Positions 2,161 through 34,682 of a stretch of DNA of 64,000 nt are shown here, piece by piece (position 1 is the first letter of the stretch; each line of letters starts with the position of its first letter). The stretch is from Acetobacteraceae bacterium (GTDB lineage Bacteria > Pseudomonadota > Alphaproteobacteria > Acetobacterales > Acetobacteraceae), in the NCBI GenBank assembly GCA_003151425.1, contig PLXO01000031.1:1-64000 (forward strand), written 5' to 3'. The notes below the pieces were generated by a model. That model was not told where the DNA came from, ran no database searches, and was given only the letters and a program-made list of their open reading frames with translations. Position numbers and translations under genes: made by a program.

Positions 2161-3153
2161 ATGGGCGCCTTCATCGTCTCGCGCATCCTGCAGGCCGTCC
2201 CGGTCCTGCTGGTGATCGGCTTCATCAGCTTCGCCATGTTCGCCTATGTCGGCGACCCCGTCACGATCATGCTGGGCCAGGACTACACCGAGGCCCAACG
2301 CGTCGCCCTGGTCCACCAGCTAGGCCTCGATCAACCGTTCTTCATCCAATACGCAAAATTCATCTGGACCGCGCTGCACGGCAACCTCGGAATGTCCTAC
2401 CGCCTGGCCCAGCCGGTCGCCGGCCTGATCGAGCAACGCCTGCCCGCGACCCTGGAACTGGTCGCCACCGCCACCGTATTCTCCCTGGTCGTCGGCGTGC
2501 CGCTCGGCGTCTACACCGGCATCTACCGCGACGCGCCGCTGGCAAGACTGTGCATGGCGATCAGCCTGGTCGGAGTATCGCTGCCCACCTTCCTGATCGG
2601 CATCCTGCTGATCCTGGTGTTCTCCGTCATGCTGGGCTGGCTGCCGAGCTTCGGACGCGGCGACGTGGTGCATTTCGGCACCTGGTGGTCCACCGGGTTC
2701 GTGACGATCAGCGGACTGCGCGCCCTGGTGCTGCCGGCGATCACGCTCGGCCTGTTCACGCTCACCCTGGTCATGCGCCTGGTGCGCGCCGAGATGCTGG
2801 AGGTACTGCGCACCGACTACATCAAATTTGCCCGCGCCCGCGGCCTGAGCAATCGCGCAGTCTATTTCGGTCACGCATTGAAGAACACGCTGGTGCCGGT
2901 GATCACCATCGTCGGGCTGCAGATCGGCAACATCATCGGCTTCTCTTTGGTTACCGAGACGGTGTTCCAATGGCCGGGGATGGGGCTGTTGCTGGTGCAG
3001 TCGGTGGCGGTTGCCGACATACCCGTGATGTCGGCCTACCTGCTGCTTGTCGGCGTGGTGTTCGTGCTGATCAACCTGATCGTCGACCTGCTTTACTTCG
3101 CGGTCGATCCAAGGCTGCGTGTCGATCGCGCCGCGGCCACGGCCGCACGATGA
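2161..3153 (+). CDS. oligopeptide/dipeptide ABC transporter permease (DppB/OppB family)
   Basis: A 330-residue inner-membrane permease with the family N-terminus (MGAFIVSRILQAVPVLLVIG), six membrane segments and the EAA-type cytoplasmic loop that docks on the ATPase (LRTDYIKFARARGLSNRAV). First gene of a four-gene import operon with DppC-, DppD- and DppF-like genes. No periplasmic binding protein is present here, so the substrate cannot be assigned; peptides, nickel and opines are all handled by this family. It ends inside a 14-bp tandem-repeat block that also carries the start of the next gene. Confidence 0.92.
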   Translation: MGAFIVSRILQAVPVLLVIGFISFAMFAYVGDPVTIMLGQDYTEAQRVALVHQLGLDQPFFIQYAKFIWTALHGNLGMSYRLAQPVAGLIEQRLPATLELVATATVFSLVVGVPLGVYTGIYRDAPLARLCMAISLVGVSLPTFLIGILLILVFSVMLGWLPSFGRGDVVHFGTWWSTGFVTISGLRALVLPAITLGLFTLTLVMRLVRAEMLEVLRTDYIKFARARGLSNRAVYFGHALKNTLVPVITIVGLQIGNIIGFSLVTETVFQWPGMGLLLVQSVAVADIPVMSAYLLLVGVVFVLINLIVDLLYFAVDPRLRVDRAAATAAR

Positions 3154-3216
3154 ATGCGCCACGATGAACGTGCCGCGATGAACGCGCAACGATGAACGTA
3201 ACGCAATGAGCGCAAC
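3147..3216 (+). repeat. five 14-bp tandem repeats bridging a stop and the next start codon
   Basis: Five consecutive 14-bp units (ACGATGAATGCGCC, ACGATGAACGTGCC, GCGATGAACGCGCA, ACGATGAACGTAAC, GCAATGAGCGCAAC). The first unit holds the stop of the DppB-like gene and the fifth holds the ATG of the DppC-like gene. Each of units 1-4 contains an ATGA stop/start overlap, as if an original ATGA junction had been amplified. The unit length is not a multiple of three. Confidence 0.9.
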
Positions 3217-4135
3217 CCACCCTCCGACGCGCTGGGCGCGCACGCTGGACAGCGACCTGCTGTACAGCTTCCGCCGCTCGCCGCTGGCGGTGGCCTCGGC
3301 GGGGGTTGCGCTGATCCTGATCCTGGCCGCCGCGCTGGCGCCCTGGATCGCGCCGCAGGATCCCACCAACGTCGCCAACCTCAACCTGCTGAACAGCTTC
3401 AATCCGCCGCTGCCGTTGGAGGGTTCGGACTGGGCGTTTCCCCTCGGCACCGACGAGCAGGGCCGCGACATGCTCTCGGCGATCATGTTTGGCTCCCGGA
3501 TCAGTCTGATCGTCGGCGCGGCGGCAATGATCTTCGCCGTGGTGGTGGGCGTCGCGGTGGGCCTGCTGGCGGGGTACGCCGGCGGGATCGCCGACGCGCT
3601 GCTGATGCGTGCGGCCGACGTGCAACTGACGTTTCCCGCGATCCTGATGGCGCTGCTGGTCGACGGCGTGGTCAGCGCGGAGCTGCCGCAGACCATGCAC
3701 GCGACGCTGCAGATCTACGTGCTGATCTTCGCCATCGGCATCAGCCGCTGGCCGCAATTCGCCCGCACCGTGCGCGGCTCGACGTTGGTAGAGCGCAACA
3801 AGGACTACGTGATGGCCGCCAGGCTGATCGGCCTCGGCCGCGTGCGGATCATGGCGACGCACATCCTGCCCAACGTGCTGGGGCCGGTGCTGGTGCTCGG
3901 CACATTGACTCTGGGCCTGGCGATCCTGGACGAGGCGACGCTGTCGTTCCTGGGCGTCGGGCTGCCGCCGACAAAGCCCTCGCTCGGCACATTGATCCGC
4001 ATCGGAGACGATTTCCTGTTCAGCGGCCAGTGGTGGGTGACGATCTTTCCGGGCCTGGCGCTGGTGCTGATGGTGCTGTCGATCAACCTGTTGGGCGACT
4101 GGCTGCGCGACGCGCTGAACCCCAGGCTTCGCTGA
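3206..4135 (+). CDS. oligopeptide/dipeptide ABC transporter permease (DppC/OppC family)
   Basis: A 309-residue second permease. It has the family's short N-terminal cytoplasmic segment, a first membrane helix, the periplasmic stretch with DEQGRDMLSAIMFGSR, and the EAA loop (ERNKDYVMAARLIGLGRVRIMATHILPN) typical of DppC. It would form the heteromeric channel with the DppB-like protein. The ATG lies in the last unit of the upstream 14-bp repeat. The stop overlaps the next ATG (TGATG), so translation of the ATPase is probably coupled. Confidence 0.92.
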   Translation: MSATHPPTRWARTLDSDLLYSFRRSPLAVASAGVALILILAAALAPWIAPQDPTNVANLNLLNSFNPPLPLEGSDWAFPLGTDEQGRDMLSAIMFGSRISLIVGAAAMIFAVVVGVAVGLLAGYAGGIADALLMRAADVQLTFPAILMALLVDGVVSAELPQTMHATLQIYVLIFAIGISRWPQFARTVRGSTLVERNKDYVMAARLIGLGRVRIMATHILPNVLGPVLVLGTLTLGLAILDEATLSFLGVGLPPTKPSLGTLIRIGDDFLFSGQWWVTIFPGLALVLMVLSINLLGDWLRDALNPRLR

Positions 4136-5124: not shown

Positions 5125-5314
5125 GGCGCCGTTGCCTCGCGCCCCGTTGCCCGAGGCGCCGATGCTCGGGGAGCCAATGCCGGGGGCACCGCTGCCCGGG
5201 GCGCCAATGCGTGAAGCACCAATCCCCGAGGCGCCAACGCCTGCGACATCCGGGACAATGGTGTCGGAGGTGCCAATGCCCGGAGCGCCAATGGGCCGCG
5301 GCGCCAATGCTTGA
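5102..5314 (+). repeat. 15-bp-period GCGCCAATGCC-type repeat tract at an ATPase-ATPase junction
   Basis: About 200 bp built from degenerate 12-15 bp units around GCGCCRATGCC, nearly all with an ATG. In frame 2 it is one continuous ORF of 70 residues starting inside the upstream gene and reading as pentapeptides (PMPGA, PLPGA, PMREA, PIPEA). Its stop overlaps the likely start of the next ATPase. On the opposite strand the same tract reads as GASGIGA-like repeats. Whether any frame is translated is unknown. Confidence 0.85.
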
Positions 5315-6356
5315 GCCACCCACCCCCGCCGCACCAATTCGTGCGTCGTCTGATGCGCCGGTGCCCGACGCGCCGATGCTCGAAGCATCCGCGATCTCGC
5401 GCGTGTTCGACGTCTCGAAACCCTGGCTGCAGCGGGTGCTGGCGCGCGAGCCGCGCCTGACGCTGCGTGCGGTGGACGAGGCAAGTTTCAGCATCGCCCC
5501 CGGCAGCACGCTGTCGCTGGTGGGCGAGTCCGGCTGCGGCAAATCGACCATTGCGCGCATGGCGGTCGGCCTGCTGCCGCCCAGCGCGGGAGAGCTCCGT
5601 TTCGAGGGCAACCCCATCTCCACCGCCCGCGCGCAGCCGGAGCTGCGCCGGCGGATGAACATGATCTTCCAGGACCCCTACGCCTCGCTCAACCCGCGCT
5701 GGCGGGTGCGCAATATCGTTGCCGAACCGATCCGCGCTTTCGCCATCCTGTCCGGCACGCCGGCGATCGCCGCGCGGGTCGGCGAGCTGCTGGCGCAGGT
5801 CGGCCTGGCGCCCGCGGACGGCGAGAAATACCCGCACGAATTCTCCGGCGGCCAGCGCCAGCGCATCTCGATTGCCCGCGCGCTGGCCTCGGAGCCGGAC
5901 TTCCTGGTGTGCGACGAGCCGACCAGCGCGCTGGACGTTTCGGTCCAAGCACAGATCCTCAACCTGATGCGCGATTTGCAGCAGCGGCTGGGCCTGACCT
6001 ACCTGTTCATCAGCCACAACCTGGCCGTGGTGCGCCATGTCTCCGACCGGCTCGGCGTGATGTACCTCGGGCGTATCGTCGAGCAGGGACCGGCCGAAAC
6101 GATCTTCCGCACCCCGCGCCACCCCTATACGCGCCTGCTGCTGGACGCGATCCCGGACCTGGAGATGGTCGGACGCAGCCGCACGCCGGTGGGCGGCGAG
6201 GTGCCCAGCCCGATCGATCCGCCCTCCGGCTGCCCGTTCCATCCGCGCTGTCCGCTTGCCAATGACCGCTGCCGCGCGGAGAAACCGAAGCATACACAGC
6301 AGCGCGAGGTGCAGGTGGCGTGCCACGCCGTGGCGGAAGGACGGGAGGCGATCTGA
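5307..6356 (+). CDS. oligopeptide/dipeptide ABC transporter ATPase (DppF/OppF family)
   Basis: A 349-residue ATPase. I start it at the ATG at the end of the repeat tract; an alternative ATG at 5376 would give a more typical 326 residues, and the track's upstream Cys/Arg-rich extension is repeat-derived. Walker A GESGCGKS, Q-loop FQDPYASLNPRW, signature FSGGQRQRI, Walker B LVCDEPTSALDV, H-loop SHNLAV, and the cysteine-bearing SGCPFHPRCPLANDRC tail are present. It energises the upstream permease pair together with the DppD-like protein. Its stop overlaps the ATG of a 19-codon leader ORF. Confidence 0.92.
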   Translation: MLEPPTPAAPIRASSDAPVPDAPMLEASAISRVFDVSKPWLQRVLAREPRLTLRAVDEASFSIAPGSTLSLVGESGCGKSTIARMAVGLLPPSAGELRFEGNPISTARAQPELRRRMNMIFQDPYASLNPRWRVRNIVAEPIRAFAILSGTPAIAARVGELLAQVGLAPADGEKYPHEFSGGQRQRISIARALASEPDFLVCDEPTSALDVSVQAQILNLMRDLQQRLGLTYLFISHNLAVVRHVSDRLGVMYLGRIVEQGPAETIFRTPRHPYTRLLLDAIPDLEMVGRSRTPVGGEVPSPIDPPSGCPFHPRCPLANDRCRAEKPKHTQQREVQVACHAVAEGREAI

Positions 6357-6445
6357 TGTCCGATCACGATCAATCCGGGCACGATCGATACCGACAAGGA
6401 CGGAAGGCGGTCTGATGTCCGATCAAGATCAATCCGGGCCCGATC
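6337..6445 (+). repeat. 59-bp-spaced duplication of a gene start
   Basis: A ~50-bp segment including the DppF-like stop, an ATG and the first codons of the following small gene occurs twice, 59 bp apart, with about five differences. The first copy makes a 19-codon ORF (MSDHDQSG...) at 6356-6415. Its TGA shares one base with the ATG of the second, full-length copy at 6415. Confidence 0.9.
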
Positions 6446-7029: not shown

Positions 7030-7150
7030 TGTCATTGCGAGGAGCGCAGCGAGGAAGCAATCCCCTGCGTCGGGGGGGATTGCTTCGTCGCTACGCTCCT
7101 CGCAATGACAGGTGGGGGCAATGACAGGTGGGGGCAATGACAGGTGGGGC
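7030..7150. repeat. REP-like palindrome plus three 16-bp direct repeats
   Basis: An 81-bp inverted repeat (arms 7030-7046 and 7094-7110, TGTCATTGCGAGGAGCG and its exact complement, with further pairing inside) is followed by CAATGACAGGTGGGGG repeated at 7103, 7119 and 7135. A half copy of the same palindrome occurs at about 38337-38367, so this is a dispersed element. Confidence 0.9.
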
Positions 7151-13692: not shown

Positions 13693-16600
13693 ATGCGCAT
13701 TTTCGGCATCGACGGCGGTATCGCCTCCATCGGCTGGGCCGTTCTGGACATCACGGACGACACGGCATCCATCGTCGCCGCTGGTGTTCGCATGTTCGAT
13801 GCGCCGGAGACGGATAAGGAGCGCACGCCGACGAACGCAGTGAGGCGGCTGCATCGCGGCCAACGCCGCGTCATTCGCCGGCGCCGGCAACGCATGGCGG
13901 CGTTGCGGATGATGTTCCAGCAACACGGGTTGCTGACCGAGGCGCATCGCGACGCATTGAAGCAGCCGGGCCTCGATCCGTGGCGACTGCGTGCGGAGGG
14001 ACTCGAACGGCCTCTGTCCGGTCTCGAAATGGCGGTGGTGCTCGGCCACATCGCGCGGCATCGCGGCTTCCGCTCCAACGCCAAGCGGGAGGCGGGCGCA
14101 AATGCGGCCGACGAGACGTCCAAGATGAAAAAGGCCATCGCGGCGACGCAGGAGCGGCTTGGCCAATGGCAGACGGTCGGCCTGATGTTCGCGCGTGATC
14201 CGAACTACACGGACCGCAAGCATAACCGCGGCCTGAATTTTGACCGGTCGATCCAGCGTTCGGATCACGAAGACGAGGTCCGCACGCTGTTCGCCACTCA
14301 ACGTCGGCTTGGCAATGCGCTGGCGACGGAAGAACTCCAGGTTGCATATGCCGACAAGGCATTCTCCCAGCTTCCGTTGCAGGACAGCGAGCACCTGCTC
14401 GCCGCCTGCCCGTTCGAGCCGGACCAGAAGCGCACCGCCCGCCGCTGCTATGCATTCGAGAAGTTCCGTCTGCTGTCGCGGTTGGCGACGCTGCGACTGA
14501 CCGTGCGTGGCCAGGAACAGCCGCCGTTATCGGCCGAACAGATCAGCCTGGCGGCAGCCGATTTCGGCCACCAAAAATCGCTGTCCTACCGCTGGCTGCG
14601 CAAGACCCTGGACCTTGATACGGGCGTGCGCTTCGCCGGGGTGGCGGAAAAGGACGAAAAGAACGACTTCGTCGCCCGGAGCGGTGCCGCAGTCGAAGGC
14701 ACCTACGCGCTGCGTGAGGTCCTGGGCGATGCCGGCTGGCGGGTGCTGATGCACAACCCGGTCATGCGCGACCGCATCGGCGAGGTACTGACGTTCCGCG
14801 AAGATCCTGGCTCTATCCGCCGCGGCCTGGAGGAGGCCGGCGTCGCGGGACTGATCCTGGACGCACTGATGGACGGTGTCGCCACCGGCAAGTTCCACGC
14901 GTTTACCCGCGCTGGCCATATCTCCGCCAAGGCAGCGCGGGCACTGATTCCGCCGCTGGCGCGTGGGCTGGTCTACTCCGACGCCTGCGCCGAAGTGGGC
15001 TACGACCATGCTAAACGGGTGGAGGTAAAGTTGGAGGACGTGCGCAACCCGGTGGCCCGCAAGGCGGTGACCGAGATGCTGAAGCAGGTCCGCGCACTGG
15101 TGCACGAATACGGCCTGCCCGAGTTCATCCATGTCGAACTGGCGCGCGACATCGGCAAGGGCGTCGAGGAGCGCGACAAGATCACCAAGGGCATCGAGGA
15201 TCGCAACAAGGAACGCGATAAGGCGCGAAAGCGCCTTGAGGAAGACATATTGGGTCGTCCGGCCAGCCTGGAAGAATTGATTCGTTACGAATTGTGGAAG
15301 GAGCAGAACGGCTTCTGCCTGTATACCGGCGACTACATCGAACCGGGATGGATCGCCGCCGGCGACAACCGCGTGCAGGTGGATCACATCTTGCCTTGGA
15401 GCCGGTTTGGCGATGACAGTTTCGTAAACAAGACGTTGTGCCTGGCACGGGCGAACCAGGCAAAGCTCGGACGCACGCCGTACGAGTGGTTCGAGGCTGA
15501 GGGTCTCGACTGGCCGCTGTTCGCCGCCCGCGTAGAAGGCTGCAAGGAGATGAAGGGCCGCAAAAAGGGCGGCTTCTATCTGCGGAAGAACGCCGTGGAG
15601 GTGGAGGAGCGGTTTCGCAACCGCAACCTGGGCGACACCCGCTATGCGACACGCCTGCTGCTCGATCTACTGGCGAGAATGTATCCGAGGGATGGGCAAC
15701 TTCACGTTCTAGCGCGTCCCGGACAGTTGACGGCAAAGTTGCGGCGGGCCTGGGGCCTCGATGATCTGAAGAAGGACGCGGAGGGTAATCGCCTGGAGGA
15801 TGACCGTCACCACGCCCTGGACGCGATCGTGGTGGCGGCAACGAGTCAATCGATGCTCCTGCGACTGACAAAGGCAGCGCAAGAGGCAGAGCGGCAAGGA
15901 GCCCCTCGTGGCTTCGATTTTGAGCATGTGCCGCTGCCGGCGGGAGGGTTCCGTGACGTTGTGCGGGATGTGGTTAAGGATGTGTTCGTCTCCCGCGCCG
16001 AACGGCGGCGGGCACGCGGCGAGGCGCATGCCGCGACGATCAAGCAGGTGCGCGAGATCGACGGCGCGCAGGTGGTGTTCGAGCGGAAGGCCATTGAGCG
16101 GCTGACGCCGGCGGACCTGGATAATATCCCGATCCCTGAGCCGTATGGGAATATCGGCGATCCGGGGAAGCTGCGCGATGAGACCGTGGCGGAGCTGCGG
16201 CGCTGGATCGAGGCCGGCAAGCCGAAGGATGCGCTGCCGCACTCGCCGAAGGGCGATGTGATCCGCAAGGTGCGCGTGGCGAACAAGGACAAGGTCGCAG
16301 TCGAGGTGCGAGGTGGCACGGCGGATCGCGGCGACATGGCGCGGGTGGATGTGTTCGCGAAGGCAGATCGACGCGGCCGGAAACAGTACCACGTGGTACC
16401 AATCTACCCTCACCAGATAGCCGACAGAGACGCATTTCCACAACCGCCCGATCGAGCAGTTATCGCGTTCAAGTTGGAAGCAGATTGGACAAAAGTGGAT
16501 CCGACCTTCGACTTCCAATTCAGTTTATATCAGAACAGCTTCGTTGAGGTTGCCAAACCTGACGGCGAGATCATTCGCGGCTATTTCAAGGGAATGGATC

Positions 16601-16770
16601 GGCAGGGAGCGCAGATTCATCTTGCGCTGCATTCCAGTCAACGCAGCCTCATTCGGGGAATCGGCAGCAAGACACTGTTGGCGTTCCACAAATTCGCCGT
16701 CGACAGGCTGGGGCGCATGTCAGAAATCGAGCACGAGAAACGCACATGGCATGGCGAGGCGTGCACATAA
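13693..16770 (+). CDS. cas9: Cas9 endonuclease, compact type II-C
   Basis: RNA-guided DNA endonuclease. I prefer the second ATG (13693): GGGG lies 8 nt upstream and the protein then starts MRIFGIDGGIASIGW; the track ATG at 13687 is 2 nt from that site. Length 1025 residues, in the compact II-C range. RuvC-I with D7; Arg-rich bridge helix about 48-75; RuvC-II PEFIHVELARDIG with E482; HNH with D564-H565 and N588 (spacing as in SpCas9 840/863); RuvC-III DRHHALDA with H707 and D710. All nuclease residues are present. The PAM-interacting region (about 897-1025) is strikingly AT-richer than the rest. The gene overlaps cas1 by 25 nt. Confidence 0.97.
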   Translation: MRIFGIDGGIASIGWAVLDITDDTASIVAAGVRMFDAPETDKERTPTNAVRRLHRGQRRVIRRRRQRMAALRMMFQQHGLLTEAHRDALKQPGLDPWRLRAEGLERPLSGLEMAVVLGHIARHRGFRSNAKREAGANAADETSKMKKAIAATQERLGQWQTVGLMFARDPNYTDRKHNRGLNFDRSIQRSDHEDEVRTLFATQRRLGNALATEELQVAYADKAFSQLPLQDSEHLLAACPFEPDQKRTARRCYAFEKFRLLSRLATLRLTVRGQEQPPLSAEQISLAAADFGHQKSLSYRWLRKTLDLDTGVRFAGVAEKDEKNDFVARSGAAVEGTYALREVLGDAGWRVLMHNPVMRDRIGEVLTFREDPGSIRRGLEEAGVAGLILDALMDGVATGKFHAFTRAGHISAKAARALIPPLARGLVYSDACAEVGYDHAKRVEVKLEDVRNPVARKAVTEMLKQVRALVHEYGLPEFIHVELARDIGKGVEERDKITKGIEDRNKERDKARKRLEEDILGRPASLEELIRYELWKEQNGFCLYTGDYIEPGWIAAGDNRVQVDHILPWSRFGDDSFVNKTLCLARANQAKLGRTPYEWFEAEGLDWPLFAARVEGCKEMKGRKKGGFYLRKNAVEVEERFRNRNLGDTRYATRLLLDLLARMYPRDGQLHVLARPGQLTAKLRRAWGLDDLKKDAEGNRLEDDRHHALDAIVVAATSQSMLLRLTKAAQEAERQGAPRGFDFEHVPLPAGGFRDVVRDVVKDVFVSRAERRRARGEAHAATIKQVREIDGAQVVFERKAIERLTPADLDNIPIPEPYGNIGDPGKLRDETVAELRRWIEAGKPKDALPHSPKGDVIRKVRVANKDKVAVEVRGGTADRGDMARVDVFAKADRRGRKQYHVVPIYPHQIADRDAFPQPPDRAVIAFKLEADWTKVDPTFDFQFSLYQNSFVEVAKPDGEIIRGYFKGMDRQGAQIHLALHSSQRSLIRGIGSKTLLAFHKFAVDRLGRMSEIEHEKRTWHGEACT

Positions 16771-17636
16771 CGCAGCCCTCGCGGCTGTCACTGGCGGACG
16801 GACAGCTCGTCGTTACGCGCGACGACGGGGACGTGCGCCTGCCGATCGAGGATGTGGCCTGGCTGATGATCGATACGCCGCAGGTGACGCTGTCCACCGC
16901 GCTGATCTCGGCCTGCATGGATGCCGGGATGGTGCTGATCACCACGGATCGGACCCACACGCCAAGCGGAATGATGCTGCCGTTCCACCGGCACCATCGC
17001 CAGGCCGAAATCGCCGCATTGCAGATCGCGATTTCCGCACCGCTGAAAAAGCGCCTGTGGCAGACGATCATTCAGATGAAGATCGCCAACCAGGCAGCGG
17101 TGCTAACCGGCTGCGGACAGAGTGCCTCGGCCTTGCTGGCGATGGCGCGGCTGGTCGGCTCCGGCGATCCCGACAACACCGAGGCGCGCGCGGCCCGCGC
17201 CTATTGGCCAAGGCTGTTCGTTGATTTCATCCGCGAGGATGGCAGCGACAAGCGCAATGCATTGCTCAATTATGGCTATGCCGTTGTGCGCTCAGCGGTG
17301 GCGCGCGCGCTGGTGGCCGCCGGCCTGCTGCCGGCCTTCGGCGTCAACCACGCCAGCATCACCAATGCGTTCAACCTGGCGGATGACCTCGTGGAACCGT
17401 TTCGGCCGTTCGTCGATCGGCTGGTATGGCGCCTGACCGACACGGGCCGCACGCGAACCGGCGAAACGACTGTGGAGGAGCGGCGTTCGCTGGCCTCCCT
17501 GCCCACGGAAGAAGCCCTGTTTGCCGACGACACGGTGACTCTGCTGGTCGCTACCGAACGCACGGCGGAAAGTTTGGTGCGGGCGATGGAAGGCAACAGC
17601 GCCGCGCTGCTGTTGCTGCCGCGGCTCGACGGCTGA
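16746..17636 (+). CDS. cas1: Cas1 integrase, type II-C
   Basis: Metal-dependent integrase that inserts new spacers with Cas2. 296 residues, type II form. The catalytic triad is visible as E146 (NTEARAARAYW), H202 (GVNHASITNAFN) and E217 (LADDLVEPFRP). The N-terminal beta domain begins WRGVHITQPSRLSL. The start lies inside the end of cas9 and the stop overlaps cas2 (TGATG), so cas9-cas1-cas2 is one tightly coupled operon. No cas4 or csn2 is present, which defines subtype II-C. Confidence 0.97.
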   Translation: MAWRGVHITQPSRLSLADGQLVVTRDDGDVRLPIEDVAWLMIDTPQVTLSTALISACMDAGMVLITTDRTHTPSGMMLPFHRHHRQAEIAALQIAISAPLKKRLWQTIIQMKIANQAAVLTGCGQSASALLAMARLVGSGDPDNTEARAARAYWPRLFVDFIREDGSDKRNALLNYGYAVVRSAVARALVAAGLLPAFGVNHASITNAFNLADDLVEPFRPFVDRLVWRLTDTGRTRTGETTVEERRSLASLPTEEALFADDTVTLLVATERTAESLVRAMEGNSAALLLLPRLDG

Positions 17637-17965
17637 TGCCGGCGACCGAGATCCGGTTCGTGTGGTTGTTTGTGTTCTTCGACCTGCCGGTGGGCACCAA
17701 GCCGGAGCGGCGGGACGCCACGCGGTTTCGTAACTTCCTCAAAGACGATGGCTTCATGATGTTGCAGTATTCAGTTTACGCGCGCGTCTGCCGGGGCGAG
17801 GATGGTTCGATGAAACACGTTGCACGCGTGACGCGGAACCTGCCCGGCAAGGGCAGCGTCCGCGCGCTTCAAGTCACCGACCGGCAGTACGGCCGGATGC
17901 GGTTGCTACTCGGCGAGGCGACAAAAACCGAGTCGGTCGGCTCCCGACAGATGGTGTTGCTGTGA
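17636..17965 (+). CDS. cas2: Cas2, type II-C
   Basis: A 109-residue ferredoxin-fold protein that bridges Cas1 dimers in the integration complex. The strand FVWLFVFFDLPVGT has the conserved Asp (D16), then RFRNFLKDDGFMMLQYSVYARVC, typical of type II Cas2. The start is the ATG overlapping the cas1 stop; the longer track frame is not used. The stop codon is embedded in a 16-bp perfect inverted repeat that separates the operon from the array. Confidence 0.95.
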   Translation: MPATEIRFVWLFVFFDLPVGTKPERRDATRFRNFLKDDGFMMLQYSVYARVCRGEDGSMKHVARVTRNLPGKGSVRALQVTDRQYGRMRLLLGEATKTESVGSRQMVLL

Positions 17966-18001
17966 ATTCCGACTCGGCAAGAAGCCGGAATTCACAGCAA
18001 C
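17956..18001. terminator. 16-bp perfect inverted repeat over the cas2 stop codon
   Basis: Arms GTTGCTGTGAATTCCG and CGGAATTCACAGCAAC are exact complements with a 14-nt loop. The cas2 TGA lies in the left arm. The hairpin is strong, but no T-run follows on either strand, so a terminator (for the cas operon or for the oncoming array transcript) is only one reading. The first repeat begins 22 bp later. Confidence 0.6.
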
Positions 18002-18023
18002 TCCATACGTCTATCGGCAAGGG

Positions 18024-18786
18024 AACCTACCACGGGGAAATCGGTAGGGAAGCCACGGCTAGATGGTGGGAACATAGAAGGGATTGCCAAACCTACCACG
18101 GGGAAATCGGTAGGGAAGCCACGGCCTGACAATCCAGCCGGCTAACGCTCATAACAACCTACCACGGGGAAATCGGTAGGGAAGCCACGGCCCGCTGAGC
18201 CGAACACCCTTGTTGGTGGACAACCTACCACGGGGAAATCGGTAGGGAAGCCACGGCAAGATGATTTCGTCATTCGCACCGCCGGGGAACCTACCACGGG
18301 GAAATCGGTAGGGAAGCCACGGCCAAAGACAGGTGTCATGCCGTCTGACTTGAAACCTACCACGGGGAAATCGGTAGGGAAGCCACGGCGTTGCTACAGG
18401 GATGGGGCGTTGTGCTTCGAACCTACCACGGGGAAATCGGTAGGGAAGCCACGGCGTTTCGTAGGTTGAAAACTCTGTGTGTGTGAACCTACCACGGGGA
18501 AATCGGTAGGGAAGCCACGGCTGGCGCGACGATCACCCGGACATTGGCCGTAACCTACCACGGGGAAATCGGTAGGGAAGCCACGGCCCTAAGCCTGCAA
18601 GGGTAATATACCCCAGAAAACCTACCACGGGGAAATCGGTAGGGAAGCCACGGCGTATAGCATTGACGGGCACGGACGCAAGGGAACCTACCACGGGGAA
18701 ATCGGTAGGGAAGCCACGGCCCCCAGAACGGCGGCAAGTACAAGCGCCATAACCTACCACGGGGAAATCGGTAGGGAAGCCACGGC
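18024..18786 (-). CRISPR. type II-C CRISPR array: 12 identical 36-nt repeats, 11 spacers
   Basis: Repeats start at 18024, 18090, 18156, 18222, 18288, 18354, 18420, 18486, 18552, 18619, 18685 and 18751; plus-strand form begins AACCTACCACGGGGAAATCG. I found no sequence difference among the 12. Spacers are 30 nt except the ninth (31). The minus-strand reading (GCCGTGGCTTCCCTACC...) lines up with the Neisseria II-C repeat and is complementary to the tracrRNA, so crRNAs are predicted on the minus strand, transcribed towards cas2. The minus-strand repeat end carries TGGTAGGTT, an extended -10-like sequence where the Neisseria repeat has its internal promoter. Confidence 0.97.
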
Positions 18787-18790
18787 CGAT

Positions 18791-18971: not shown

Positions 18972-19982
18972 CTACGACGCCATCGCCTGCTCAAACACCC
19001 CAGTATACCCGAACAGCCCAACCGCCCCGCCCGTGTGCAAAAACACCACCCGCTCGCCCTTGCCGATCGCGCCCTTGCGGATCAGGTCGATCATCCCCGC
19101 CATTGCCTTGCCGGAATAGACCGGGTCCAGCAGCACACCCTCAAGCCGTGCCAGCATCAGCACCGCCTCGATCATCCCCGGCGTCGGCTGGCCATACCCC
19201 GGCCCGACATAATCGCAATTCGCCTCCACCGCCCCGCGCGGCACCCCGCCACGCACGCCAACCAACTCCGCGGTCGCCTCGGCCAGCCGGTGCACGTTCG
19301 CCTCCTGCCGGTCCTTCGGCAGCCTTACGCCAATCCCCAGCACCGGCACCCCGGCGTTGCAGCCGGCCAGTCCCACCACCAGCCCCGCCTGCGTCCCGGC
19401 ACTCCCCGTCGCCGTCACCACACGGTCGATCCGCAGCCCCATCTCGTCGGCCTGCTGCATCAGCTCCTGCGCGCAACCGACATAGCCCAGCGCGCCCACC
19501 GGGTTCGATCCACCGCCCGGGATCACGTACGGCTTCGCGCCCGTCTCGCGCAACGCGGCGCCCTTCGCCTCGGCCTCGGCGTTCATGTCGAGGCCAGCCG
19601 CCCGGTACTCGATCGCGCAGTCGAACAGCCGGTCCAGCAGCACGTTGCCGCTGTTCAGGTAGTCGCGGTCGTTGGTCTCGATCCGGTGCTCCAGCAGCGC
19701 GGTGCACTTCATGCCGAAGCGCCGCGCCACCGCCGCCGTCTGGCGCACATGGTTGGACTGCACCGCACCCTGAGTCACCAGGTGGTCCGCCCCCTCGGCC
19801 CGCGCCGCGCCAACCAGGTACTCCAGTTTTCGAATTTTGTTGCCGCCGGTCGCCACCACCGTGCAGTCGTCCCGCTTGATCCAGATCTCCGGCCCGCCCA
19901 GCTCGCGTGTCAGGTTGTCCAGCCGCTCCAGCGGCGTCGGGGTCGGAAACATGCGAACGCGAGGGAACCGGGCGAGGTGCAT
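18972..19982 (-). CDS. dcyD: D-cysteine desulfhydrase / ACC-deaminase family PLP enzyme
   Basis: A 336-residue fold-type II PLP enzyme converting D-cysteine to pyruvate, sulfide and ammonia; close relatives deaminate 1-aminocyclopropane-1-carboxylate. I start at the ATG 9 nt after AGGAG. The PLP lysine is in [13 protein letters not shown] (K49), followed by [15 protein letters not shown], the [14 protein letters not shown] phosphate-binding loop and a C-terminal FLHTGGA. ACC deaminase and desulfhydrase are hard to separate by eye. It lies just beyond the CRISPR array, transcribed towards it. Confidence 0.88.
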
Positions 19983-30343: not shown

Positions 30344-30422
30344 TACGTGTTGCAGATTCATTACGTGTTGCGGATTCATAAAGCATGACCACACGTGTTG
30401 CAGATTCATAAAGCATGACCAC
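30344..30422 (+). repeat. ACGTGTTGCAGATTCAT tandem repeats
   Basis: An 18-bp unit is followed by two 30-bp units (ACGTGTTGCRGATTCATAAAG...) that differ at one or two bases. They are AT-richer than their surroundings and lie 120-200 bp upstream of the polyamine-type importer. They could be operator sites or simple slippage products. Confidence 0.85.
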
Positions 30423-30545
30423 GCGACCCGGCGCCGTCGAAGGCCTGAAGATAACGGCCCCTCGCGCCGCCACCGGCTTCCTCGTTGACACCGCCAGCCG
30501 CCGCGCGGAATGCTCCCGCCGGGAGATTTCCGGGCTGGAACAATC

Positions 30546-31358
30546 ATGACGGACGCCCTGGCGCGTGTAGAGCACACGGCGGTATCGCTGCTGGTGGCTC
30601 TCGGCGTCGCGCTGATCGGCGTGCCGCTGCTTCTCACGCTGTACCTCAGCGTGTTCGACGAGAAGCTGATCCTGTTCCCGCCGCACGCCTACACCCTTGG
30701 TTGGTATCCCGCGATCCCCGTCACCTTTGGCGCGCCGATCTGGACCAGCCTGCAACTCGGCATCGCCGCCGTCATCGGCAGCCTGCTGCTGGGCGTGCCC
30801 GCCGGCATCGGCCTTTCGCGCCATCGCTTCCGCGGCAGCAGGTTAATCGGCACGCTGCTGCTCGCCCCGCTCACCGTGCCCGGCATCGCGCTTGGCCTCG
30901 CGATCTACATCGTGCTGGTGAGCATCGACGAGCAGACCGGCACGGCGCTGACCGGTTCGCTCGTTGGGCTGGTGCTGGGCCACATCCTGATCACCACGCC
31001 CTGGGTGGTGCGGCTGTGCCTCGCCAGCCTGGCCACAACCGACCGCACCGCCGAGGAAGCCGCGGCCAGCCTCGGCGCCCATCCGCTCAAGGTGATCTGG
31101 CGCGTCACCCTGCCCGCGATGCGCCCCGGCATCATCGCCGGCGCGTTGTTCGCCTTCGTGATTTCCTTCGAGAACCTCGAACTGGCGCTGTTCCTGAGCA
31201 GCCCGGGCGTGACCACGCTGCCCGTCGCGGTACTGCAATATCTTGAATACCATATCGATCCGATGGTGGCGGCCGTGGCGGTCGCGCAGACCGTCGGCAT
31301 CGCCGTCCTGCTGTTGCTGCTCGACCGCTTCGTGCGGCTCGGCCGGGTGGTGCGATGA
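30546..31358 (+). CDS. ABC transporter permease, spermidine/putrescine type (PotC-like)
   Basis: A 270-residue permease with six predicted spans and the EAA loop EEAAASLGAHPLKVIWRVTLPAMRPGI. YLSVFDEKLILFPPHAYTLGWY is typical of PotC N-termini. I use the ATG at 30546; an in-frame ATG 12 codons earlier is possible. First gene of an importer in the order permease-ATPase-binding protein-permease. Its stop overlaps the ATPase ATG (ATGA). Confidence 0.88.
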   Translation: MTDALARVEHTAVSLLVALGVALIGVPLLLTLYLSVFDEKLILFPPHAYTLGWYPAIPVTFGAPIWTSLQLGIAAVIGSLLLGVPAGIGLSRHRFRGSRLIGTLLLAPLTVPGIALGLAIYIVLVSIDEQTGTALTGSLVGLVLGHILITTPWVVRLCLASLATTDRTAEEAAASLGAHPLKVIWRVTLPAMRPGIIAGALFAFVISFENLELALFLSSPGVTTLPVAVLQYLEYHIDPMVAAVAVAQTVGIAVLLLLLDRFVRLGRVVR

Positions 31359-32626
31359 CCGCGGCGCCGGGCGCATCGTCGCTTTCTCTGGACCACCTGA
31401 CGCGGCGGTTCGCCACCCACACCGCGGTGGACGAGCTTAGCCTCGAGGTCAGCCCTGGCGAGATGGTCGTGCTGCTCGGCCCCTCCGGCTGCGGCAAGAC
31501 CACGACGCTGCGGATGATCGCCGGCTTCATCGCGCCGCACGCCGGCGACATCCGCCTGGACGGCAGCAGCATCGTTGCACTGCCGCCGCACCGGCGCGAC
31601 ATGGGCATCGTGTTCCAGAGCTACGCGCTGTTCCCGCATCTCAGCGTGGCGCGCAACATCGCCTTCGGGCTGGAGATGCGCCGGGCAGGCACGGCCGCGA
31701 CCAACGCGCGGGTGACGGAGATGCTGCGCCTCGTGCGGCTCGATGCGTTCGCGACACGGTTGCCGCGCCACCTGTCCGGCGGCCAGCAGCAGCGGGTGGC
31801 GCTGGCGCGGGCACTGGCGATCCACCCGCGCGTGCTGCTGCTGGACGAGCCGCTGTCCAACCTGGACGCCGCGCTGCGCCAGGATATGGCGCGTGAGATC
31901 CGCCTGCTGCAACGGGGCCGCGGCATCACCACGATCATGGTGACGCACGACCAGACCGAGGCGATGGCACTGGCCGACCGGCTGGTGGTGATGCATGACG
32001 GCAAGGTGCAACAGATCGGCCCGCCCGAGGCGCTGCATCTGCGCCCCGCCAACCCCTTTGTCGCCCGCTTCATCGGCGGCAGCAATGTCGTGCAAGGTCG
32101 GATCGATGCCGGAACACGACTGGTGCTGGCCGACGGACCGGCGCTTGCGCTTGCCGCCGCCTATCATGGCGCCGGTCATTGCGCCACCGGTCATGTCGCC
32201 GCATCTCATGCCATTGCTGCGGCAACGCTCGCCGTGCGCCCTGACAGCATTCGGCTCGCCGAACCAGGTCGGCGCGAGGCCCGCACCGAGGGCACCGTCG
32301 AGCTCTGCACATGGCTCGGCGCCACGCTCGAGCACGTCGTGCGCCTCAGTCCGGGAGTGGCGATCCTGGCGCGCGGTCCAGGTCTCGGCCCGGACGCGGC
32401 CCCGCGCCACGCGGCTGGGACGCGCGTCTCGCTGCACTGGTCGGCTTCAGACGAATTCCTGTTCGATGCCGGGGATCGCCCGGTCGCCGCGGATGCGCCC
32501 CACTTCACCGCAGCCCACGTCCCGCCGCCCGACTTCACTTCGCCCCCCTTCACCCCGCCCAGCTGCACTCCACCCAACTGCACGCCGCCCAACTACACCC
32601 GTCCAACTTCACCCCGCCCCACTTGA
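31355..32626 (+). CDS. ABC transporter ATPase, PotA type, with repeat-derived tail
   Basis: A 423-residue ATPase: Walker A GPSGCGKTT, Q-loop VFQSYALFPHL, signature LSGGQQQRV, Walker B LLLDEPLSNLDA, H-loop THDQTEA, then a TOBE-like C-terminal domain. After the usual end (about residue 380) it continues as a proline-rich tail of ~40 residues in pentapeptide-like steps (FTPPS, CTPPN, CTPPN, YTRPT) from a tandem-repeat expansion. Another repeat lies inside the TOBE region (GAGHCATGHVAASH). It works with the flanking PotC- and PotB-like permeases. Confidence 0.9.
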   Translation: MTAAPGASSLSLDHLTRRFATHTAVDELSLEVSPGEMVVLLGPSGCGKTTTLRMIAGFIAPHAGDIRLDGSSIVALPPHRRDMGIVFQSYALFPHLSVARNIAFGLEMRRAGTAATNARVTEMLRLVRLDAFATRLPRHLSGGQQQRVALARALAIHPRVLLLDEPLSNLDAALRQDMAREIRLLQRGRGITTIMVTHDQTEAMALADRLVVMHDGKVQQIGPPEALHLRPANPFVARFIGGSNVVQGRIDAGTRLVLADGPALALAAAYHGAGHCATGHVAASHAIAAATLAVRPDSIRLAEPGRREARTEGTVELCTWLGATLEHVVRLSPGVAILARGPGLGPDAAPRHAAGTRVSLHWSASDEFLFDAGDRPVAADAPHFTAAHVPPPDFTSPPFTPPSCTPPNCTPPNYTRPTSPRPT

Positions 32627-32647: not shown

Positions 32648-33727
32648 ATGCCTGAGCCCACTGATCGCCCTGCCCTGCCCCGCCCGCTCTATGACCGCCC
32701 CCTTTCCCGCCGCACCATGCTGGGCGCCGGTGCGCTGCTAGCCGCGCCTGCCCTGCTGTCGCACCGCGCCGCGGCGGCCGAGAACTGCGTCGTCGGCACC
32801 TGGGGCGGCGACTATGCCAGGCTGCTGCGCGACAATATCGACGACCCAATCGTGAAGCCCCTGGGCATCGATGTGATCCAGGATGTCGGTGACGAGACGC
32901 CACGCTTCGCCAAACTGACCGCGCAACGGAAATTGCCGCGCGGCACGATGGACATCGCCTGCCTCGGCGCCGTGAACGGGTTCCGCGGCACCGACGCCGA
33001 TCTGGTGGAAACGCTGGACGAAACGAAGGTGCCAAATCTCAAGCACGTCCTGCCGGCGCTGCGCATGCCCGCCTTCGTGCCGCATATCTATAGCGCCCAG
33101 GTGATCGTTTACAATCCGGCCAACGTTCCGAACCCGCCACAGAGCTTCGGCGACCTGCTCGATCCGCAATGGAAGGGCAAGATCGGCATGGTCAGCACGG
33201 TCGCGCAATGGGTGATGGCGGGAGCCAGCCTCTACGCGACCGGCACCACCACCGACTTCGACAAGGCCAAGGCCTTCATGCTGAAGCTAAACGCCAATGG
33301 CCTGCGGCTGTATCCGGAGACCGACGCTTTGGCGCCCGCCTTCAAGTCCGGCGAGATCGATGTGGGCGTCATCTGGCTGGCACGCAGCTTCATGTGGCAG
33401 AACGCCGGCTTCCCGGTGAAGGGCGCGTTCCCCAAGGAGGGGGCCATCCTTTACGTATCTGGTATGGTTCTGCCGAAGAACGCACCGAACAAGGAGGCCG
33501 CCTACAAATATTTGAACGCGTTGCTGGAACCGTCGGCCCAGCAAGGTTTCGCGGCCCATATGGGCTATCTGCCCACGGTCGACGACGCGCCGCTGAGCGG
33601 CAATGTGGGCGAGCAGCTCGCTTTCCCGGAACCCAAACCCAAGCTCGTCACGGTGGATTACGCGGCCATGAGCAAGGCAATGTCGGATCTGAACGATTGG
33701 TGGCTCAAGAACATCCAGCATAGCTGA
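32648..33727 (+). CDS. ABC transporter substrate-binding protein, polyamine/Fe type (PotD-like)
   Basis: A 359-residue extracytoplasmic protein with a Tat-like signal (LSRRTMLGAGALLAAPALLSHRAAA). The mature protein has the PotD/F-type folds: NCVVGTWGGDYARLL, an YSAQVIVYNPANV strand, FGDLLDPQWKGKIGM and GAFPKEGAILY. The ligand (polyamine, opine or similar) cannot be fixed from sequence. It lies between the ATPase and the second permease; GAGGGAG precedes the ATG. Confidence 0.87.
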   Translation: MPEPTDRPALPRPLYDRPLSRRTMLGAGALLAAPALLSHRAAAAENCVVGTWGGDYARLLRDNIDDPIVKPLGIDVIQDVGDETPRFAKLTAQRKLPRGTMDIACLGAVNGFRGTDADLVETLDETKVPNLKHVLPALRMPAFVPHIYSAQVIVYNPANVPNPPQSFGDLLDPQWKGKIGMVSTVAQWVMAGASLYATGTTTDFDKAKAFMLKLNANGLRLYPETDALAPAFKSGEIDVGVIWLARSFMWQNAGFPVKGAFPKEGAILYVSGMVLPKNAPNKEAAYKYLNALLEPSAQQGFAAHMGYLPTVDDAPLSGNVGEQLAFPEPKPKLVTVDYAAMSKAMSDLNDWWLKNIQHS

Positions 33728-33759
33728 AGCGCGATCGCTTGAGGCGGGCTCGTGAAAGC

Positions 33760-33801
33760 ATGAACCACGCAATCAAACTGGCAGAGCGTCGGCACGCGTG
33801 A
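33760..33801 (+). other. 13-codon leader ORF duplicating the start of the next gene
   Basis: ATG at 33760 reads MNHAIKLAERRHA then TGA, and the GTG of the PotB-like gene overlaps that stop (GTGA). The real gene starts MNDAINQAERAARRR, so the leader is a diverged copy of its first codons, 38 bp upstream. This is the same architecture as at 6356/6415. Confidence 0.75.
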
Positions 33802-34682
33802 ATGACGCGATCAATCAAGCGGAACGTGCGGCGCGCCGGCGTGAGGCGGGCGCCGCGATCTCGCTGCTCGGCCCGGCCAGTCTGCTGATGCTGCTGATGC
33901 TGCTCGTGCCGTGCGGCTTCATGCTGCGCGACAGCCTGAACCGTTTCGATCCCACCGAGATGATGATCGCGGCGGTGACGCCGGAGAACTATCTGCGGTT
34001 TATCGTCGACCCGTTCTATCGCGGCGTGCTGTACACGACCATTCGCGTCTCCGTCATCGTCACCGCTGCGTGCCTGGTATTCGGTCTGCCGATGGCCCGG
34101 CGGCTCGCGCGCAGCACAAGTCGATGGAAATCCGCGCTGGTAGTGCTGACGGTGCTGCCACTGTTCATCGGCTCGACCACGCGTACCGCCGGCTGGATGA
34201 TCCTGTTCAGCCGCGGCGGCATGCTGGACATCGTGTCGCAACGCATGTTCGGCGCCGGGTCGGTCAATCTGATGTACACCGAGCCCGCGGTGATCCTGGG
34301 CATCATCGCCATCAACCTGCCGTTCACCATCCTGACCTTGCAGAGCGTGTTCGAGGGCATCGATCCGCGGCTGGAGGAAGCCGCGGCCTCGATGGGCGCG
34401 GCACCGTCGCGTGCATTCTGGCGCATCGTCTTCCCGCTGGCGCTGCCGGGCGTGCTGATCGCCGGCGTGCTGTGCTTCATCCTATGCATGAACGCGTTCG
34501 CGACGCCGGTACTGCTGGGAGGGCCAAAGTTCCAGATGATGGCGCCGCTGCTGTACTGGGCGTTCTCCGGCGACAACAACTGGCCGTTCGCGGCGGCGTT
34601 GGCGTTCATATTGATGGGAACGACGCTCGGCCTGACCGGGTTGGCGAACGTAATGATCCCGCGGCGGTACCGCGGAGGATGA
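33798..34682 (+). CDS. ABC transporter permease, spermidine/putrescine type (PotB-like)
   Basis: A 294-residue permease with six spans and the EAA loop EEAAASMGAAPSRAFWRIVFPLALPGV; the N-terminal span SLLMLLMLLVPCGFMLRDSL and the NYLRFIVDPFY periplasmic loop fit PotB. GTG start overlapping a leader-ORF stop. Last gene of the importer operon; a convergent gene ends 18 bp downstream. Confidence 0.88.
   Translation: MNDAINQAERAARRREAGAAISLLGPASLLMLLMLLVPCGFMLRDSLNRFDPTEMMIAAVTPENYLRFIVDPFYRGVLYTTIRVSVIVTAACLVFGLPMARRLARSTSRWKSALVVLTVLPLFIGSTTRTAGWMILFSRGGMLDIVSQRMFGAGSVNLMYTEPAVILGIIAINLPFTILTLQSVFEGIDPRLEEAAASMGAAPSRAFWRIVFPLALPGVLIAGVLCFILCMNAFATPVLLGGPKFQMMAPLLYWAFSGDNNWPFAAALAFILMGTTLGLTGLANVMIPRRYRGG

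What the first reader, a model, noticed from the sequence alone, without database searches (positions are those of the whole stretch)
33760..33840. Second case of a duplicated gene start as overlapping leader ORF
MNHAIKLAERRHA-stop precedes MNDAINQAERAARRR by 38 bp, with a GTGA overlap. The same design as at 6356, in an unrelated operon, suggests a recurring mutation route or a selected coupling device.
Basis: partly seen in the sequence, partly recalled or inferred. Interest (0 to 1): 0.6.

Follow-up and report, generated by a model that had tools for sequence, protein, structure and literature searches.

The report
Stop-start ladders between operon genes
The tiny reading frame in front of this transporter gene is most likely an old, diverged copy of the overlapping stop/start junction between two neighbouring genes, and the same genome holds some 30 clearer cases in which such junctions were copied in tandem, in a length that lets a ribosome step from stop to start to stop along the row.

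Summary
The mini-ORF is real: ATG 33760, MNHAIKLAERRHA, TGA 33799-33801, overlapping GTG 33798 of an ABC permease. The two starts match 23/32 nt at 38-nt offset (gapped score reached by 2/2000 shuffles and 1/1532 other gene starts), so the resemblance is probably, not certainly, real. Relatives mostly lack the spacer; their permease start overlaps or closely follows the stop of the binding-protein gene. The mini-ORF thus lies in about 101 extra nt. It is not one of two oddities. Three or more equally spaced ATGA (periods 13, 14, 16, 17, 19-24) occur at 30 places in the 7.75-Mb genome with periods of 2 mod 3 (14, 17, 20, 23) but at 4 with 1 mod 3. In the 2 mod 3 class each unit reads ATG...TGA and its stop overlaps the next start. 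Five such rows run from the stop of one gene to the start of the next; the clearest is in this window: dppB-like, four 14-nt rungs, dppC-like at 3150-3208. Case 6356 is a one-rung tandem duplication (59 nt); the finding fits a diverged one-rung version. Best reading: tandem duplication of stop/start junctions, of which mainly phase-keeping ones survive because they keep termination-reinitiation coupling. Function beyond that is unproven.

The parts
33760..33801 (+). Leader mini-ORF MNHAIKLAERRHA-stop
33798..33801 (+). GTGA: permease start GTG overlapping mini-ORF stop TGA (4-nt overlap)
33758..33789 (+). Copy 1 of the 38-nt-offset resemblance (around the mini-ORF start)
   Evidence: 23/32 identical to copy 2
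33796..33827 (+). Copy 2 (around the permease start)
33728..33828 (+). About 101 nt between the binding-protein stop and the first permease sequence shared with nearest relative L025, where it is absent
   Evidence: unique in the genome
33724..33727 (+). CTGA at the binding-protein stop; CTG is in the mini-ORF frame and 74 nt (2 mod 3) from GTG 33798; same place as the TTGA start of relative L027/L009
   Evidence: use of CTG as a start is inferred
33739..33741 (+). TTG, alternative in-frame start of the mini-ORF, 11 nt after the binding-protein stop
33741..33748 (+). GAGGCGGG, Shine-Dalgarno-like (-7.5 kcal/mol) but 12-15 nt from ATG 33760; GTG 33798 scores only -2.7
32648..33727 (+). ABC substrate-binding protein gene
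   Evidence: PF13416, PF13343
33798..34682 (+). ABC permease gene
   Evidence: PF00528
30510..32626 (+). Upstream operon members: ABC permease (30510-31358) and ATPase (31355-32626)
6337..6445 (+). Comparison case: 59-nt tandem duplication of a TGATG junction; mini-ORF 6356-6415 (MSDHDQSGHDRYRQGRKAV) starts like the downstream ORF and ends like the upstream gene (GRKAV / GREAI)
3150..3209 (+). Four-rung ladder, 14-nt units MNAPR*, MNVPR*, MNAQR*, MNVTQ*, each stop overlapping the next ATG; first TGA (3151-3153) is the stop of the dppB-like gene, last ATG (3206) starts the dppC-like gene
2161..4135 (+). dppB-like (2161-3153) and dppC-like (3206-4135) permease genes joined by the ladder
   Evidence: PF00528 + PF19300; PF00528 + PF12911

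Best explanation
The mini-ORF is the product of an old expansion of the junction between the binding-protein and permease genes. Ancestrally the permease start overlapped or adjoined the binding-protein stop, as in most relatives. In this lineage about 101 nt of extra sequence arose there, at least partly by copying the start region (38-nt offset). The added lengths are such that the mini-ORF frame is open from the binding-protein stop (CTGA 33724) to GTGA 33798 (74 nt, 2 mod 3). A ribosome ending the binding protein can therefore, in principle, restart on the mini-ORF and then on the permease, which has a poor ribosome-binding site of its own. It is a one-rung, diverged instance of a recurring kind: 'stop-start ladders', tandem copies of a stop/start junction with unit length 2 mod 3, so that every unit is a mini-ORF whose stop overlaps the next start. 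Slippage or tandem duplication creates copies of any length; mainly those that keep the stop-start phase persist, because a gap of 20 nt or more would otherwise break coupling. Shown: sequence, geometry, recurrence, phase preference, anchoring of ladders at both genes, absence of this spacer in relatives. Inferred: origin of this spacer by duplication, actual reinitiation, use of CTG or TTG, and purifying selection as the filter.
For: Start resemblance above chance. Relatives have compact junctions at the same place: TTGA in L009/L027, ATGA in L011 and L015, GTGA in L042, 8-nt and 14-nt overlaps in L030 and L028, no spacer in the nearest, L025. Genome-wide recurrence: mini-ORFs with >=22/32 similarity to a gene start and stop within 4 nt: 7 seen, 0.125 expected. 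ATGA triples: 30 loci at 2 mod 3 against 4 at 1 mod 3, p = 6e-6; with unit identity >=0.5, 27 against 4; both sampled rungs are open in 28 of 30. General tandem arrays in the sample show no such preference (88 at 2 mod 3, 81 at 1 mod 3). Repeats running from a gene end to a gene start: 8 at 2 mod 3, 1 independent at 1 mod 3. Ladders join real gene pairs: dppB/dppC-like permeases, MlaE/ABC ATPase, TGT/QueF, two sugar-type ABC permeases, GST/glyoxalase-like. Family: period-17 repeat-like loci 50 in 33 genomes, against 21 in 18 (period 16) and 12 in 11 (period 13). Published: gaps of about 20 nt almost abolish coupling, 4-nt overlaps are the commonest junction (PMC10666635).
Against: At 33760 only two diverged copies resemble each other; a third copy at the binding-protein stop was tested and rejected (A-C score reached by 1312/2000 shuffles). 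Irregular chains of RTGA-linked mini-ORFs are not more common than in Markov sequence. Counted over ATGA and GTGA together in the 2.19-Mb sample, repeat-like runs are 13 at 2 mod 3 against 10 at 1 mod 3, not significant. Expansion of the finding's junction has no intermediate among relatives. No translation data.
Confidence: 0.6

Rival explanations
1. The resemblance at 33760 is chance plus shared start-region composition; the spacer arose by an unrelated insertion or deletion, and the GTGA overlap is the usual bacterial junction.
For: Only 70% identity over 30 nt and no TRF call. Gene starts in this genome share MNDA/MSDA-like openings, and 1 of 1532 other gene starts matches copy 1 as well. 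Six of nine differences are at third codon positions, as similar N-terminal composition would also give.
Confidence: 0.22
2. The permease really starts at or before ATG 33760: an in-frame 39-nt (13-codon) N-terminal repeat exists and one base was lost, by a recent frameshift mutation or an assembly error in this draft genome.
For: The offset is one base short of 39; the mini-ORF lies in the frame that the ancestral start (CTG 33724, compare TTGA in L027) would have used; differences concentrate at third positions (6 of 9). The genome is a 368-contig draft.
Against: GTG 33798 overlaps the stop exactly as in the commonest kind of bacterial gene junction, which would be a coincidence; a fused N-terminus would be longer than in the nearest relatives. 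Reads are not available.
Confidence: 0.13
3. The mini-ORF and the ladders are selected translational devices: rungs tune the ratio of downstream to upstream product or act as contingency loci that change by unit gain or loss.
For: Recurrence, phase rule and anchoring; three or more rungs are seen only in the 2 mod 3 class of the repeat-like runs listed; ladders join subunits of the same complex or pathway; the mini-ORF has a stronger SD-like site than the permease.
Against: The mini-ORF is absent from relatives; the dppC ladder has no SD-like site at its last three rungs or at the dppC start, and only -1.7 kcal/mol at the first; neutral survival of phase-keeping duplications explains the pattern.
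Confidence: 0.12

Closest known systems
Termination-reinitiation (TeRe) translational coupling at ATGA/GTGA/TGATG gene overlaps (PMC6728339, PMC10666635)
   Same: Same 4-nt or 1-nt overlaps between co-directional genes of one complex or pathway.
   Different: Known pairs have one junction; here the junction itself is copied in tandem, with mini-ORFs of 5-24 codons in between.
Short upstream ORF coupled to its gene, e.g. that of iraD (PMC5574718), and bicistronic-design leaders of synthetic biology (PMC5995908)
   Same: A short leader cistron whose stop overlaps or adjoins the start of the gene.
   Different: Those leaders are single and, as far as I know, not copies of the gene start; here the rung resembles the gene start and can be repeated.
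Bacterial minisatellites / VNTR and phase-variable tandem repeats
   Same: Tandem units of 14-23 nt of the kind produced by slippage or unequal exchange.
   Different: Here the unit carries the stop/start junction and the period keeps the chain in phase whatever the number of units.

Membership tests
Termination-reinitiation coupled gene pair | Overlap of stop and start codon (ATGA, GTGA or TGATG) | tested here: met
   GTGA 33798-33801
Termination-reinitiation coupled gene pair | Translation of the downstream gene depends on translation of the upstream one | not testable with these tools
   Needs reporters or ribosome profiling
Stop-start ladder (this report) | Two or more tandem copies of the junction with period 2 mod 3 and open rungs | tested here: inconclusive
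   At 33760 one rung: 38 nt from ATG, or 74 nt from CTGA; similarity 23/32 only. Met at 3150 and, with one rung, at 6356
Stop-start ladder (this report) | First stop belongs to the upstream gene, last start to the downstream gene | tested here: inconclusive
   Right end met; left end only through a CTG at the binding-protein stop. Met for window 3150, L142, L100, L141, L092
Minisatellite / tandem repeat array | Recognised head-to-tail copies | tested here: not met
   TRF finds none at 33760
Regulatory leader peptide or structured leader RNA | Known RNA family, or leader conserved in relatives | tested here: not met
   No Rfam match at E <= 1; mini-ORF absent from relatives

The most novel reading that the evidence does not exclude
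Acetobacteraceae carry a so far undescribed class of elements, stop-start ladders: rows of 2 to 8 mini-ORFs of 5 to 8 codons, each linked to the next by an ATGA overlap, bridging consecutive genes of an operon and serving as adjustable translational links whose rung number can change without losing phase.
Probability: 0.2. Interest if true: 0.8.

Novelty: new variant of a known kind. Interest (0 to 1): 0.58.

Why it matters
If ladders are translated, a ribosome would end and restart several times in a row between two genes. That is a natural test of how efficient and repeatable termination-reinitiation is, and of whether it is the same ribosome that goes on. Even as neutral by-products, the phase rule is evolutionary evidence, independent of reporters, that coupling at overlapping genes matters enough to filter duplications. 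It also explains some apparent gaps and frameshifts that gene finders meet at operon junctions, and why draft annotations of such genomes may carry wrong starts.

Tried and rejected
Three-copy model (binding-protein stop, mini-ORF start, permease start as tandem copies): rejected, A-C similarity is at chance. A 102-nt-offset repeat 33729-33749 / 33831-33851 (81%): noted, too short and GC-rich to interpret. Dispersed element or transposon as source of the spacer: no other copy in the genome. RNA element: no Rfam match. Simple excess of RTGA-linked mini-ORF chains: not seen against Markov sequence, so the claim rests on repeat-structured chains and on phase. Strict scan with long ORFs only found no second case; widening to all candidate starts and shorter genes did. 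A 16-nt ATGA repeat that first looked like counter-evidence is one dispersed element (GCAATGACAGGTGGGG-like) and was left out of the phase count together with related CAATGACAG repeats at periods 20, 23 and 24. A first check of rung openness had an off-by-one error and was redone. In the phylum sample period-17 triples occur in 56 of 200 genomes, mostly with unlike units by eye; no period-16 control was run there. Literature searches found coupling and leader-cistron papers but nothing on tandemly copied stop/start junctions; most subscription journals are not covered.

Full report
Observation. The sequence is as described. ATG 33760 opens a 13-codon frame ending in TGA 33799-33801; the ABC permease gene (PF00528) starts with GTG 33798, so stop and start share GTGA. 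The starts are 38 nt apart and match 21/30, or 23/32 in the best stretch. Two nulls were used. With gene starts exchanged among genes, a match this good with a mini-ORF stop beside the start is expected 0.075 times in the 2.19 Mb sampled. In a gapped comparison the score is reached by 2 of 2000 shuffles and 1 of 1532 other gene starts. The resemblance is thus probably real, but it is weak evidence alone. The 6356 case is strong: 50 nt at 92% with 59-nt spacing, covering a TGATG junction, so the mini-ORF starts like the downstream ORF (MSDHDQSG / MSDQDQSG) and ends like the upstream gene (GRKAV / GREAI).

Context in relatives. The operon holds a permease, an ATPase, a binding protein and the second permease. 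Close relatives labelled Acetobacteraceae or Rhodospirillales were found. In nearly all of them the permease start overlaps or closely follows the binding-protein stop: TTGA in L009/L027, ATGA in L011 and L015, GTGA in L042, longer overlaps in L028 and L030; L029/L032 has a long gap of its own. The nearest relative, L025 (89% identity from residue 21), has no spacer: sequence homologous to window 33829 follows its stop directly. The window therefore carries about 101 extra nt, unique in its genome. The mini-ORF frame runs open from CTGA at the binding-protein stop (33724) to GTGA (33798), 74 nt or 2 mod 3, and 33724 is where L027 has its TTGA start. The SD-like pairing is stronger before ATG 33760 (-7.5 kcal/mol, though 12-15 nt away) than before GTG 33798 (-2.7).

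Recurrence in the genome. The finding's own test was to look for other cases. In 2.19 Mb of the genome (1626 genes), mini-ORFs whose 32-nt start region matches the gene start in >=22 positions and whose stop lies within 4 nt of it number 7, against 0.125 expected. Reading them showed something more general: tandem arrays at gene starts carrying ATGA or GTGA in register, more often on the sense strand (35 arrays) than the antisense (15). In the clearest, the unit is 14, 17 or 20 nt. Since these lengths are 2 mod 3, each unit reads as ATG, a few codons, TGA, with the TGA inside the next ATGA. In this window, 3150-3208, the stop of a dppB-like gene is the first ATGA, four rungs follow (MNAPR*, MNVPR*, MNAQR*, MNVTQ*), and the last ATG starts a dppC-like gene. 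The same both-ended arrangement joins GST- and glyoxalase-like genes (L142, 17 nt x 4), MlaE and an ABC ATPase (L100, 14 x 3), TGT and QueF (L141, 20 x 3) and two ABC permeases (L092, 17 x 2).

Phase. Three equally spaced ATGA were counted over the whole genome for periods 13, 14, 16, 17 and 19-24. With one dispersed repeat family left out, 30 loci have periods of 2 mod 3 and 4 have 1 mod 3 (p = 6e-6; 27 against 4 with unit identity >=0.5). Both sampled rungs are open in 28 of 30; the other two end in TGATGA. General tandem arrays of the sample show no such bias (88 against 81). Repeats that run from the stop of an ORF of >=100 codons to the start of another number 8 at 2 mod 3 and 3 at 1 mod 3, two of which are double periods of the window and L142 ladders. 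Over ATGA and GTGA together in the sample alone, the bias is not significant (13 against 10), although among those repeat-like runs three or more rungs occur only at 2 mod 3. In 200 family genomes, repeat-like loci number 50 for period 17 (33 genomes), 21 for 16 (18) and 12 for 13 (11); period 14 occurs in 98 of 200 genomes, inflated in a few by 7-nt repeats. The window's genome has many: 32 matches at period 14 and 16 at period 17.

Explanation. This genome is rich in short tandem arrays (603 in 2.19 Mb), so duplications of junctions will arise. Published reporters show that a gap of about 20 nt almost abolishes coupling, and that 4-nt overlaps are the commonest junction (PMC10666635; PMC6728339). 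A duplication of 2 mod 3 length across an ATGA, GTGA or TGATG junction keeps a 4-nt or 1-nt overlap at every step; other lengths break the chain or, at 0 mod 3, repeat the start in frame. Survival of phase-keeping duplications then gives ladders without need of a new function. The finding fits as an old one-rung case; its own duplication origin is the weakest link.

What is not shown. No translation of any rung, no dependence of the permease on the mini-ORF, no strain variation in rung number, and no intermediate for the spacer. A one-base error or frameshift within an in-frame 39-nt repeat remains possible at 33760. Gene starts used in the scans come from a simple coding-score caller of my own, not from curated annotation. 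The period classes were counted after the pattern had been noticed in the sample, so the whole-genome counts are not fully independent of it; the family counts are nearly so, as the window's genome adds only 5, 2 and 1 loci to them.

Verdict. Observation confirmed; interpretation partly supported: the recurring route is real and larger than claimed, the selected device is open.

Noticed in passing
window 3150-3209: Four 14-nt stop-start rungs between dppB-like and dppC-like permease genes; became the clearest member of the class described here.
   Followed up: yes
window 5148-5383: 15-nt units with ATG starts at the beginning of the second ATPase gene of the dpp-like operon, in frame, so the true start is uncertain.
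   Followed up: partly
window 7102-7149: GCAATGACAGGTGGGG x 3, a 16-nt repeat with close copies on several other contigs of the genome; a dispersed short element, not a gene start.
   Followed up: partly
window 13693-18790: Cas9-like protein (HNH_4, RuvC_III), Cas1, and a regular repeat array (AACCTACCACGGGGAAATCGGTAGGGAAGCCACGG) at 18021-18790: a CRISPR-Cas locus that looks like type II.
   Followed up: partly
window 32496-32624: 15-nt array (CGCCCAACTTCACCC, about 8.7 copies) at the 3' end of the ATPase gene just before the binding-protein gene; another expanded operon junction.
   Followed up: no
window 30363-30422: 30-nt unit ACGTGTTGCAGATTCATAAAGCATGACCAC x 2 upstream of the first permease gene, carrying GCATGA.
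   Followed up: no
L148 (reverse strand) around 19194-19400: Row of 15-nt GTGAAACCCAAGGAC units before a membrane-protein start that looks like signal peptidase II; in-frame variant of start copying.
   Followed up: partly
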